Below, in pieces: positions 35,802 to 38,400 of a stretch of 41,008 nucleotides of DNA. Origin of the DNA: Streptococcus parasanguinis (GTDB lineage Bacteria > Bacillota > Bacilli > Lactobacillales > Streptococcaceae); assembly GCF_901875555.1 (NCBI RefSeq), contig NZ_CABFMD010000006.1, positions 1-41,008 of the forward strand, written 5' to 3'. The notes under the pieces are model-generated. The model searched no databases. It saw only the letters and a list, made by a program, of their open reading frames with translations, and had not been told where the DNA came from. A program made the translations under genes and the position numbers. Within the stretch, counting starts at the first letter, position 1, and every line of letters starts with the position of its first letter.

Positions 35802-35938
35802 GAAACTTTCCGCTGTGAGAAAAGTGCCTGAAGCTTAATAGTTCAGGCACTCGGAATTATTGAGACCCTAGGCTCAATAATTAGTCATGGAACTTCTTTG
35901 AAGTTCGCTGACGTCCGTACTCACCTAAGGAAAGTTTC
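35802..35938. repeat. R1 structured repeat, full copy
   Basis: A 137-bp element with perfect 10-bp inverted ends (GAAACTTTCC, GGAAAGTTTC) and three internal hairpins. These are GTGCCTGAA/TTCAGGCAC, AATTATTGAG/CTCAATAATT and GAACTTC/GAAGTTC. It is the inverse-oriented partner of the copy at 38263. A 5-bp hairpin (35966-35979) between it and the paralogue B stop is weak as a terminator. The rest of 35605-35986 shows only the promoter and terminator listed. Confidence 0.88.
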
Positions 35939-35986
35939 TAAGATGACTTTGTCTTCAGTCTGAAAGGACCTTTTGGTCCATCTAAT

Positions 35987-37042
35987 TTATTTCACTTTTT
36001 CCAATTTTTCAACTAAATGATAGTCTTCTGTGAAAACAAGGACTGTCTTCCCTCCATTTACAGGGACATAATAAAAATCAGATCCTAGTTGTTTGTAGAC
36101 GTCTTTCATACTATATAATTGATAATCTTGAGAATCCACCGCATCTTGAAGATCCTCAAAGACCTCATTCACTTTGTCAGCTGACTTTTCTTGATCAAAC
36201 TTACTGGAAGGCATTTTTTGGAGCTCTTCTAGGGTATAAAAAGCCGTACCTTCGCTGCTATCAAATTCACTATAAGTAAGAATGCCACGAGCATTTAATT
36301 CAAGGTAATTGGTTTCATCGTCATAAGAACGCTCAATTTTCCATTTCCCAAGGAGCACTTTAGGAATTTCTGTCTTGTGAAAAATAGCATTTTTCTTAAA
36401 GCTCTCTGAATGATCACTATAGGTCACCAAATCCATCAAGTCATTGGCTAAAATCACATTGGTCCCATTACTTTGGAGTAGATTATAAACAAGCCCATGC
36501 TCGTCTTTAATGATGACAACTTCCCTCGTGTGGAGGTCAAATTTTCTATCAACATCAGCTAAGGTCTTCAGCTTGGAGTAGTTTAACTGGTTTAAAGCTT
36601 TCTGAAACTCTTGGCTCGCTTCCTTCCCCTTATAAACTTTTTCAATCTTATACTTACCATTAGATCGTGGCTCTTCTTGATTTAATTCATAAACTACTGC
36701 TGTTGAATCAGCAGGCCCAACCCAAATTCCTTCCAAACTTGGAGTCGGTTGGAAGAAAAAGAAGTAAGCCAATACAATAACGGCTAGTATTCCCACACCT
36801 GATAAAGCCCATTTTGTCTGCTTATTCCATTTCACACGAAACCGTTTATCACTTGGAGTTGAAGGGGTCAATTGAACTCCCTTCTCTTGTGATACTGTAG
36901 TGGATGTAGCTGGCTCTTCGAGTCTTGTTTCTTTTCGTTCTACCAGAAACTCTCCTGCTTCCCGAGCTGCTTGGAACTCTTGTAGACTCGGCTTCCGGTT
37001 ATGGAGTGCTTCAAAATAGTCAACCCAATCTTTTTGATTCAT
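35987..37042 (-). CDS. Single-pass membrane protein, paralogue B (unknown function)
   Basis: A 351-residue protein built like paralogue A: N-terminal motif DWVDYFEALHNRKPSLQEF (5-23), a shorter hydrophilic linker (about 36-72), a membrane segment at 78-97 and an outer domain beginning PSLEGIW. The linker lacks the Ala/Pro richness of paralogue A. GGAGG precedes the ATG. The family is not recognised. The outer domains are similar in pattern but substantially diverged, indicating an old duplication. Confidence 0.7.
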   Translation of the reverse strand: MNQKDWVDYFEALHNRKPSLQEFQAAREAGEFLVERKETRLEEPATSTTVSQEKGVQLTPSTPSDKRFRVKWNKQTKWALSGVGILAVIVLAYFFFFQPTPSLEGIWVGPADSTAVVYELNQEEPRSNGKYKIEKVYKGKEASQEFQKALNQLNYSKLKTLADVDRKFDLHTREVVIIKDEHGLVYNLLQSNGTNVILANDLMDLVTYSDHSESFKKNAIFHKTEIPKVLLGKWKIERSYDDETNYLELNARGILTYSEFDSSEGTAFYTLEELQKMPSSKFDQEKSADKVNEVFEDLQDAVDSQDYQLYSMKDVYKQLGSDFYYVPVNGGKTVLVFTEDYHLVEKLEKVK

Positions 37043-37081
37043 CTATTCCTCCTAATTGATAAATGTTTTCAACCTGATCCT

Positions 37082-37090
37082 ATTATACCA
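37082..37090 (-). promoter_or_regulatory. Promoter of paralogue B (extended -10)
   Basis: TGGTATAAT on the minus strand, about 40 bases before the start; no good -35. Confidence 0.6.
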
Positions 37091-37129
37091 TACACGGAAG
37101 ATCTCTCACTCATTTTCAGAAAATAAAAG

Positions 37130-37163
37130 AAAAAGTCCAAGAAATTTTCTACTTGGACTTTCT
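37130..37163 (-). terminator. Terminator of the rfbACB operon
   Basis: AAAGTCCAAG (37132-37141) and CTTGGACTTT (37152-37161) pair over 10 bp with a 10-nt loop, followed by TTTCTTTT on the minus strand, just after the rfbB stop. Confidence 0.85.
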
Positions 37164-37166
37164 TCC

Positions 37167-38213
37167 TTATTTCAAAACTTTTTGTGTTTTCGCGTAGTTA
37201 GCTTCTACAGCTTCTTTTTCAGCTTTCCACCAGTCTTGGTGATCGGTGTACCACTTGATCGTTTCTTCCAAACCTGCTTCGAAGTTTGTGAATTGTGGTT
37301 CCCAACCTAATTCTTCACGCAATTTTGTTGAATCAATCGCGTAACGCAAATCGTGACCAGCACGGTCTGTTACACGGTCGTAAGCATCTCTTGGTTGACC
37401 CATTTTTTCAAGGATGAGTTCAAGCACTTCCTTATTGTTCTTTTCACCGTCAGCACCGATTAAGTAAGTTTCACCGATACGGCCCTTGGTAAGAATAGCC
37501 CAAACACCAGTTGAGTGGTCGTTGGTGTGGATCCAGTCACGGACGTTCTTCCCTTCACCGTAAAGTTTTGGCTTGATACCCGACAAGATATTGGTGATTT
37601 GACGTGGGATGAACTTCTCGATGTGTTGGTATGGTCCGTAGTTGTTTGAACAGTTAGAAATCGTTGCTTTGACACCAAAGGAACGTACCCAAGCCTTCAC
37701 AATCAAGTCTGAAGCAGCCTTGGTTGATGAATAAGGGGAAGATGGATTGTATTTGGTTTCCGCAGTGAATTTTTCACCAGGACCTTCACCATGTCCAGGA
37801 AGATCCTCACGCAATGGAAGGTCTCCATACACTTCGTCTGTTGACACGTGGTGGAAACGAAGATCATACTTACGAGCCGCTTCCAAGAGTGTATAAGTTC
37901 CAACAAAGTTGGTGTAGATAAATGGAGATGGATCTTTGAGGGAGTTATCATTGTGGCTTTCAGCCGCATAGTGAACAATGGCATCAGCCTTAGCAGCCAA
38001 TTTATCGACCAATTCAGCGTCAGCAATATCACCCACAACCAATTCAACACGATCTCCAAGGATTTCTTCGATATTGGCACGGTTCCCAGCATAAGTAAGT
38101 TTGTCCAAGACTGTTACATGCACGTCTGGATGGTTGTTGTAGACATAGTGTACGAAGTTTGAACCGATGAAACCAGCGCCACCGGTTACGATGATATGTT
38201 TGTATTCAGTCAT
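37167..38213 (-). CDS. rfbB: dTDP-glucose 4,6-dehydratase
   Basis: A 348-residue short-chain dehydrogenase/reductase making dTDP-4-keto-6-deoxyglucose, the second step to dTDP-L-rhamnose. The NAD motif GGAGFIGSN is near residue 11, the STDEVYGDL active-site segment near 125, and Tyr/Lys are in SPYSSTKAASD. It is the last gene of rfbA-rfbC-rfbB. A 265-base gap with an R1 element separates it from rfbC. Confidence 0.96.
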   Translation of the reverse strand: MTEYKHIIVTGGAGFIGSNFVHYVYNNHPDVHVTVLDKLTYAGNRANIEEILGDRVELVVGDIADAELVDKLAAKADAIVHYAAESHNDNSLKDPSPFIYTNFVGTYTLLEAARKYDLRFHHVSTDEVYGDLPLREDLPGHGEGPGEKFTAETKYNPSSPYSSTKAASDLIVKAWVRSFGVKATISNCSNNYGPYQHIEKFIPRQITNILSGIKPKLYGEGKNVRDWIHTNDHSTGVWAILTKGRIGETYLIGADGEKNNKEVLELILEKMGQPRDAYDRVTDRAGHDLRYAIDSTKLREELGWEPQFTNFEAGLEETIKWYTDHQDWWKAEKEAVEANYAKTQKVLK

Positions 38214-38262
38214 TTTTTCTCCAAAAATAATAGTTTATTTTTAAACTTTAAATCAATCTTTT

Positions 38263-38400
38263 TTAGCTTTCCTTAGGTGAGTACGGACGTCAGCGAACTT
38301 CGAAGAAGTTCCATGACTAAGTTTTGAGCCTAGTGTCTCAAAACTTCCGAGCACCTGAAACAAAAATAGTTCAGGTGCTTTTCTCACGGCGGAAAGCTAA
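38263..38400. repeat. R1 structured repeat, full copy in the rfb operon
   Basis: A 138-bp element with perfect 10-bp inverted ends (TTAGCTTTCC, GGAAAGCTAA). Inside the ends GTGAG/CTCAC can extend the stem. Three hairpins follow: GAACTTC/GAAGTTC, AAGTTTTGAG/CTCAAAACTT and GCACCTGAA/TTCAGGTGC. Loops and linkers (CGGACGTCAG, CATGACTAA, CCTAG) are conserved with the copy at 35802, while stems differ in compensating ways. It lies between rfbC and rfbB, inside the operon mRNA. Confidence 0.9.

What the first reader, a model, noticed from the sequence alone, without database searches (positions are those of the whole stretch)
35802..38400. R1: a four-stem structured element in two full copies with compensatory stem changes
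The copies at 35802-35938 and 38263-38400 are in opposite orientation and about 138 bp long. Linkers and loops are nearly identical. The base changes fall in stems and are matched on the other arm: outer ends GAAACTTTCC/GGAAAGTTTC versus TTAGCTTTCC/GGAAAGCTAA; AATTATTGAG/CTCAATAATT versus AAGTTTTGAG/CTCAAAACTT; GTGCCTGAA/TTCAGGCAC versus GCACCTGAA/TTCAGGTGC. Several independent paired changes in two copies indicate selection on a folded form (a closed stem with three hairpins), either as RNA in the transcripts or as a mobile palindromic DNA unit. I do not recognise it as BOX or RUP.
Basis: partly seen in the sequence, partly recalled or inferred. Interest (0 to 1): 0.72.

Follow-up and report, generated by a model that had tools for sequence, protein, structure and literature searches.

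The report
Folded streptococcal repeat, two life forms
The two look-alike folded DNA copies belong to a family of small structured elements widespread in streptococci: one copy looks like a tiny transposon sitting in a gene's stop-transcription signal, the other is a spacer between two sugar-pathway genes.

Summary
In detail: two ~138-bp copies, 35802-35938 (+) and 38263-38400 (-), share a closed multi-hairpin fold with paired changes; in a 36-sequence alignment 40 of 49 base pairs change on both sides. The copies are two different things. Copy A is the middle of a ~250-bp miniature transposon (35713-35965) with IS1182-family ends, sitting in an intrinsic terminator that is present on both sides; two relatives have one terminator and no element. 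Of 68 distinct dispersed copies, 29 have a duplicated flank (39 do not, at my threshold) and 43 carry the IS1182 3' end. Copy B lies between rmlC and rmlB, without such ends. A covariance model finds the core in 176 of 197 Streptococcus genomes. In 40 genomes, 109 of 140 loci read fall at eight recurring sites, among them grpE-dnaK, purD-purE, yqeH-yhbY, glyQ-glyS and rmlC-rmlB. It is not wholly undescribed: copy A matches Rfam RF02616 (SSRC8, a Streptococcus pyogenes sRNA) over its full length, E 8e-15, below the gathering score. The model does not detect BOX. Mobility of the transposon form is well supported; the role of the fixed copies (probably RNA processing or stability) is inferred.

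The parts
35802..35938 (+). Copy A, structured core (P1-P4)
35713..35965 (+). Copy A as a whole: IS1182-type miniature transposon between two terminator copies
   Evidence: flank conservation, empty site in L032 and L035
35693..35712 (.). Terminator hairpin, 5' copy of the duplicated target
35966..35979 (.). Terminator hairpin, 3' copy of the duplicated target, next to the 3' end of the 37042-35987 gene
35717..35729 (+). 5' terminal repeat region (GCATAGACAACTG); a weak member of the family end
   Evidence: alignment of 5' ends; 24 of 68 dispersed copies have at least 9 of 10 matches to GTAGACAAAC, copy A itself fewer by eye
35945..35962 (+). 3' terminal repeat GACTTTGTCTTCAGTCTG, 17 of 18 identical to the reverse complement of the IS1182 left end CAGATTGAAGACAAAGTC
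38263..38400 (-). Copy B, structured core, sense to rmlB, in the rmlC-rmlB intercistronic region
38407..38423 (-). P0 hairpin upstream of copy B (AACGAGCGAAGCGAGTT, tandem G.A type)
   Evidence: sequence; P0 tally in other loci
38214..38478 (-). rmlC-rmlB intercistronic region holding copy B
   Evidence: ORFs, gene names
32694..32834 (-). Remnant of a third element of the transposon type, core deleted (limits approximate)
   Evidence: intact copy at the same place in L032 15222-15366

Best explanation
R1 is a ~138-bp folded core, often with a small upstream hairpin P0, that exists in two forms. (1) Shown: in S. parasanguinis-type genomes it is the cargo of ~250-bp miniature transposons with IS1182-family ends; a large part of them sit between two copies of a terminator hairpin. 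Inferred: an IS1182 transposase acts in trans on the terminal repeats and joins the element at the feet of the target hairpin, so the whole stem-loop is duplicated and each neighbouring gene keeps a terminator. Copy A (35713-35965) is one of these. (2) Shown: the core without transposon ends lies at orthologous intercistronic sites of operons in many species, mostly in the sense of the mRNA. Copy B (rmlC-rmlB) is one. Inferred: these fixed copies act as folded RNA in the mRNA, most likely as a processing or stability element that uncouples expression of the two neighbouring genes. The IS either captured such a core or seeded it; the direction is not known.
For: Ends: the 3' end consensus of the dispersed copies equals the IS1182 left end CAGATTGAAGACAAAGTC; 43 of 68 copies have at least 13 of 18 matches, 0 of 68 shuffled; 0 of 29 operon copies tested. 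Target: 29 of 68 distinct insertions have a duplicated flank at or above the 99th percentile of cross-locus pairs (score 24; copy A is just at it), and 27 of the 29 form a hairpin. Of the 30 best-scoring IS1182 loci read, 23 had both ends, 21 of those had both flanks, and by eye 18 of the 21 have the same hairpin on both sides. Empty sites: window copy A against L032 and L035; L032 1446-1583 against L035, L037 and L043, where one terminator becomes two. L201 is an IS1182 element (1682 bp, similar hairpin on each side) with the core between its end and the transposase gene. Fixed sites: 140 loci in 40 genomes; purD-purE in 24 genomes, grpE-dnaK 23, yqeH-yhbY 15, glyQ-glyS 14, rmlC-rmlB 11 (names); both flanking ORFs sense in 102 of 140. 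RNA level: at sense operon sites G.U cells exceed A.C cells 82 to 21 (48 to 20 site-pair events, p 0.0009).
Against: 39 of 68 dispersed insertions show no duplicated flank at the threshold, and some cross-locus control pairs score as high as 44. Of five sites with relatives that lack the element (window copy A, L032 1446, L033 3075, L034 4304, the L032/L035/L036 3687 site), only the first two show a clean hairpin duplication. Three IS1182 copies have different hairpins on their two sides. No transposition was observed. Not every operon copy is sense: recurring antisense sites exist at rbfA/infB (10 genomes) and at the lipoate ligase / dihydrolipoyl dehydrogenase pair (6 genomes). In a non-streptococcal genome (G315, 48 matches) 8 of 12 loci read lie antisense at or within 12 nt of a stop codon. 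The G.U excess is not seen outside P1 in dispersed copies (13 against 13), at antisense sites (5 against 5 events) or in G315 (8 against 9 cells). Its p value ignores shared ancestry, and A2 was fitted to the model. The downstream genes share no theme that would suggest a ligand.
Confidence: 0.7

Rival explanations
1. All copies are one parasitic DNA repeat (BOX/REP/ERIC-like); the operon copies are old insertions that lost their ends, and the fold is kept only by mobility or by palindrome-correcting mutation, with no host function.
For: IS1182-type copies exist, including ones shared by 6 genomes next to scrK, with what looks by eye like a decayed IS1182 end. Antisense sites, and the antisense copies of G315 near stop codons. 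No G.U excess outside P1 in dispersed copies.
Against: The same operon sites are occupied in up to 24 of 40 species genomes, and across such copies 46 of 49 pairs change on both sides (alignment fitted to the model); 0 of 29 operon copies tested have the IS1182 end; G.U excess at sense sites.
Confidence: 0.3
2. The core is a true cis-regulatory RNA (riboswitch or protein-binding leader) of rmlB, dnaK, purE, glyS and yhbY, and the transposon copies are an accidental by-product.
For: Sense position shortly before the next gene: median distances to the automatic ORF start of 40, 31, 20 and 20 nt at dnaK, glyS, yhbY and rmlB (-5 at purE, where the start was called inside the core); many conserved unpaired positions (A1).
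Against: The downstream genes have no common metabolite or pathway; several sites are antisense; different core subtypes are found at one site in different species (purE, glyS, dnaK).
Confidence: 0.12
3. R1 copies are genes for independent sRNAs of the SSRC8 type.
For: RF02616 covers copy A end to end; SSRC8 was seen on Northern blots and its ends set by circular RACE (PMC3675131: section 17 and passages of section 16).
Against: Both ends of the RF02616 consensus are themselves a repeated terminator-like hairpin next to IS1182-like ends, as expected for a MITE in a terminator. 47 and 37 matches, some of them pieces, in two genomes. In 35600-36010 three promoter-like pairs were found where 1.4 (sd 1.4) are expected.
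Confidence: 0.1

Closest known systems
Rfam RF02616 SSRC8_2 (Streptococcus sRNA 8)
   Same: Copy A matches model 1-281 of 281 at E 8.1e-15, copy B at 1.4e-9; 13 of 13 core loci tried from other genomes match it at E 1.1e-5 or better.
   Different: The scores seen lie below the gathering score of 72; the family is described as an sRNA, with no mention of repeats, IS1182 ends or operon sites in the parts of PMC3675131 that I read.
IS1182 family; IS1272 / TnSha1 of staphylococci
   Same: Transposase family NF033551 and hairpin/terminator targeting (passages of PMC4923244 and PMC5678879).
   Different: IS1272 and TnSha1 are reported to delete or replace the hairpin with no duplication; most streptococcal IS1182 copies read and many R1 elements have the hairpin on both sides, an outcome that PMC5678879 drew as a possible pathway (Fig 13b legend).
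BOX elements of S. pneumoniae and BOX-like repeats of S. suis
   Same: Small, intergenic, structured, modular streptococcal repeats, thought to be MITEs (PMC3049150, parts read).
   Different: The R1 covariance model does not detect BOX (best E 0.83 over 21 loci, filters off); ends and target differ.
IS1202 family
   Same: Long target duplications, 27 and 28 bp, in two streptococcal members (passages of PMC10132070).
   Different: The full-length copies read have ends of another sequence (TGTCAATCGAAAATGAC type), and where a duplicated target could be read it is not a hairpin; not the mobiliser.

Membership tests
RF02616 SSRC8_2 | Score at or above the gathering threshold (72 bits) | tested here: not met
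   58.2 and 41.6 bits in the window; 32.8-61.3 bits in 13 other loci
RF02616 SSRC8_2 | Significant full-length match to sequence and structure | tested here: met
   1-281 of 281, E 8.1e-15 for copy A
IS1182-family MITE | Terminal repeats shared with an IS1182 element | tested here: met
   3' end in 43 of 68 dispersed copies, 0 of 68 shuffled; copy A 17 of 18; the 5' end of copy A is weak. 29 operon copies tested do not have it; copy B shows none by eye
IS1182-family MITE | Insertion into hairpins with duplicated target | tested here: met
   29 of 68 copies, copy A at the threshold, 39 not; clean at 2 of 5 sites with empty relatives, copy A being one
IS1182-family MITE | Mobilisation in trans by the transposase | not testable with these tools
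   needs an experiment
BOX | boxA/boxC sequence and structure | tested here: not met
   no significant CM match in 21 BOX loci
IS1202-mobilised element | IS1202-type ends | tested here: not met
IS1272-like stem-loop replacement | Target hairpin deleted, no duplication | tested here: not met
   copy A has both hairpins; 18 of 21 streptococcal IS1182 loci with both flanks keep the same hairpin on both sides
Cis-regulatory leader RNA | Regulates the downstream gene | not testable with these tools
   position and G.U polarity only
RUP / SPRITE | Family sequence | not tested
   no reference sequence was at hand

The most novel reading that the evidence does not exclude
The core is a new class of structured, portable intercistronic RNA: it is present in about nine tenths of Streptococcus species and at least one other Lactobacillales genus, long held at the same operon junctions, and works as an operon-partitioning (processing or stabilising) element. 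A terminator-targeting IS1182 element has carried it as cargo, giving bursts of tens of copies.
Probability: 0.3. Interest if true: 0.82.

Novelty: new variant of a known kind. Interest (0 to 1): 0.62.

Why it matters
It joins three things that the papers read here treat apart: an Rfam 'sRNA', a terminator-targeting insertion-sequence family, and a set of structured spacers at recurring operon junctions. If right, SSRC8 should be re-annotated as a MITE, streptococcal IS1182 shows the hairpin-duplicating outcome that PMC5678879 drew only as a possibility, and grpE-dnaK, purD-purE, glyQ-glyS, yqeH-yhbY and rmlC-rmlB become a ready set of natural replicates for testing how a folded spacer sets the balance of two genes in one mRNA.

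Tried and rejected
BOX: recalled primer BOXA1R used to fetch 21 loci; no significant R1 model match. IS1202 family as mobiliser: ends and targets differ. Riboswitch-type regulon: no common theme among the downstream genes. A pseudoknot between the P3 loop (CCTTAGG) and the 3' linker (CCTAAGG) was considered by eye; it fits many but not all copies and was not tested statistically. The antisense Rfam wcaG match at E 0.13 was treated as chance. Strand polarity in dispersed copies gave no clear answer. An intact core-bearing IS1182 was not seen in the two S. parasanguinis-type genomes searched most closely: the best IS1182 matches of G138 and G039 contain stops; L201 with the core comes from another genome. 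L206 has the core just outside an IS1182 end and L204 a weak partial match (E 1e-5) nearby; these were not pursued.

Rows dropped: 109 matches gave 99 usable copies, 73 distinct insertions, then 5 rmlB-type copies were set aside, leaving 68. In some searches, 3 of 72 full copies had no anchor. A1 used 36 of the 92 cores extracted, some with slightly shifted ends. A2 used 100 of the 140 loci. One search counted identical rows once and left loci outside the named sites out of the sense total. One search left out 2 minus-strand matches and repeated rows (13 of 20 counted). The 29 operon copies were a chosen subset. The 30 IS1182 loci were the tool's best-scoring ones, one per genome.
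Full report
What is there. The window is from a Streptococcus parasanguinis-like genome (rmlB 98-99% identical to three named S. parasanguinis strains). The two copies are at 35802-35938 (+) and 38263-38400 (-). Each strand folds far better than shuffles (z -7.2 to -8.3). At Rfam gathering scores the window has no match. With a permissive search of 35600-38600, copy A matches RF02616 SSRC8_2 from model position 1 to 281 (58.2 bits, E 8.1e-15) and copy B 1 to 281 (41.6 bits, E 1.4e-9); the gathering score is 72.

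The fold is real. A MAFFT alignment of 36 cores from dispersed, rmlB and IS-linked copies pairs in 91.9% of cells; 40 of 49 pairs have changes on both sides; none of 500 shuffles reaches any of the five measures; sliding the partners by 1-3 columns drops pairing to 32-47%. On 101 further copies, 96 distinct, aligned to the resulting model (a fitted alignment, so it leans to the structure), 46 of 49 pairs change on both sides and 94.5% of cells pair.

Copy A is a miniature transposon. A BLAST search finds 47 and 37 matches to copy A, some of them pieces, in two complete relatives. Flank alignments show that the core is the middle of a longer element with a 5' end around GTAGACAAAC and a 3' end GACTTTGTCTTCAATCTG. 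Outside those ends many copies have, on both sides, the same 12-34 bp segment, different at each locus: 29 of 68 distinct insertions reach the 99th percentile of cross-locus controls (score 24; highest control 44; copy A scores 24), and in 27 of the 29 the segment forms a hairpin; 39 do not reach it. At two sites relatives without the element show one terminator where the filled site has two: copy A against L032 and L035, and L032 1446-1583 against L035, L037 and L043. Three other sites with such relatives, L033 3075, L034 4304 and the L032/L035/L036 site near 3687, show no clean duplication.

The mobiliser. IS1202 elements, a first guess because of their long target duplications, have other ends and no hairpin target in the copies read. 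IS1182-family transposases are found in 137 of 197 Streptococcus genomes, 63 above the curated cut-off. Their left end is CAGAYTGAAGACAAAGTC, as in R1. Of the 30 best-scoring loci read, 23 had both ends, 21 both flanks, and by eye 18 of the 21 have the same hairpin on each side; L200, L213 and L217 have two different hairpins. The consensus 3' end of 68 dispersed R1 copies is identical to the IS end; 43 of 68 have at least 13 of 18 matches, 0 of 68 after shuffling; the 5' end is less conserved (24 of 68 with at least 9 of 10; copy A is not one by eye). L201 is an IS1182 element (NF033551, 442.6 bits) with a similar hairpin on each side and the R1 core between its end and its transposase gene. 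Staphylococcal IS1272 and TnSha1 also target terminator hairpins but are reported to delete or replace them without duplication (passages read of PMC4923244 and PMC5678879); whole-hairpin duplication is a pathway drawn as a possibility in the legend of Fig 13 of PMC5678879. A large survey (PMC9208149, passages read) reports IS1182 among families over-represented between convergent genes.

SSRC8 re-read. The RF02616 consensus begins and ends with the same terminator-like hairpin, just outside sequences like the IS1182 ends (alignment). I infer that the S. pyogenes sRNA SSRC8, seen on Northern blots and end-mapped by circular RACE (PMC3675131, section 17 and passages of section 16), is such a MITE. 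Of the five papers listed by the search for SSRC8, one held the term.

Copy B is of the other kind. It lies between rmlC and rmlB, sense to rmlB, without IS1182 ends. Members of the same fold lie at the same place upstream of rmlB in S. suis, S. sanguinis, S. sobrinus, S. equinus, S. orisratti and others, while some species have none. Strains and species close to S. parasanguinis carry a divergent member there (L031, L034-L036, L038, L043).

The family at large. A BLAST search with copy A finds matches in 93 of 197 Streptococcus genomes. The covariance model matches 176 of 197 at E 0.001 or better, with at most 16 candidates scored per genome. Among 198 Lactobacillales genomes 27 match: 26 of the same genus and G315 of another family, which has 48 matches. 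In 40 Streptococcus genomes 140 loci were read. 109 of the 140 fall at eight sites: purD-purE (24 genomes), grpE-dnaK (23), yqeH-yhbY (15), glyQ-glyS (14), rmlC-rmlB (11), antisense at rbfA/infB (10), antisense at a lipoate ligase / dihydrolipoyl dehydrogenase pair (6; the ligase name is recalled from its sequence), and beside scrK in convergent position (6) (other gene names). Both neighbours are sense in 102 of 140, antisense in 20, convergent in 12, divergent in 5, and one was undetermined.

RNA or DNA. G.T (G.U) cells should exceed A.C cells on the strand that is selected as RNA. Sense operon copies: 82 against 21 cells, 48 against 20 site-pair events, binomial p 0.0009. Antisense sites: 19 against 10 cells, 5 against 5 events. 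Dispersed transposon copies: 33 against 18 (p 0.049), but 13 against 13 outside P1. G315: 8 against 9. This favours RNA-level selection at sense operon sites. It is not proof: copies are related and the alignment was fitted to a model. A hairpin P0 precedes 105 of 140 cores under lax criteria (48 of 140 after shuffling), 43 of them with tandem G.A.

How it most likely works. Shown: 3' ends shared with IS1182, hairpin on both sides of many copies, two clean empty sites, an IS with the core inside, recurring operon sites, conserved fold. Inferred: trans-mobilisation by IS1182; joining at the feet of an extruded terminator hairpin; capture of the core by an IS (or the reverse); and, for the fixed copies, a role of the folded RNA in processing or stabilising the mRNA between two cistrons. 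The copies in G315 (8 of 12 loci read lie antisense at or within 12 nt of a stop codon) argue that a purely sense-RNA role cannot be the whole story.

Known or new. Small structured streptococcal repeats as MITEs are known (BOX, RUP, SPRITE; PMC3049150, abstract, sections 3 and 5-7 and passages read). IS1182 targeting of terminators is known in staphylococci. One narrow Rfam family describes a member. I found no description of the genus-wide family, its operon sites or its link to IS1182 in ten searches of the held library, of which I saw listings and the papers named here; the library holds open-licence papers only. On checking, the confidence in the best explanation was lowered from 0.72 to 0.70, because five, not four, sites had empty relatives and copy A's 5' end is weak.

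Noticed in passing
window 32508-32585 and 40931-41008: A second dispersed repeat (GAGTGGGACAGAAATCGGT...CACCTCCGCACAGTTGAGTAGG), two copies 97% alike; the longer unit, ending in a terminator-like GGCTAGGACTTTTGTCCCAGCC, also seems to lie inside the rmlB-leader core of S. sinensis (L073, by eye).
   Followed up: partly
L045, L047, L056, L057 upstream of rmlB; inside L031 13956-14262; window 13278-13319 and 13401-13442: Another structured-looking repeat (GAACACGGG...CCTTTGTATCTTAAATT) lies directly before the rmlB start codon in some species and, it seems, as an inserted module in the P3 loop of R1 in L031; no Rfam match to it at gathering score in L031, L045, L047 and L056.
   Followed up: partly
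L037, L375 (P3); L033, L096, L352 (P4): The tips of P3 and P4 are exchanged for similar alternative modules at unrelated sites, so the element is modular, as BOX is.
   Followed up: no
G315, L393-L404: A non-streptococcal Lactobacillales genome with 48 matches to the core model, some in tandem; 8 of 12 loci read lie antisense at or within 12 nt of a stop codon.
   Followed up: partly
L200, L213, L217: IS1182 copies flanked by two different hairpins, perhaps from recombination between copies or a two-site event.
   Followed up: no
L332 1097-1228 and 1301-1438: Two tandem cores between purD and purE.
   Followed up: no
L063 9836-9970: A Streptococcus suis rmlB core whose two P1 arms look like two different allele types and no longer match, a sign of recombination within the element.
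   Followed up: no
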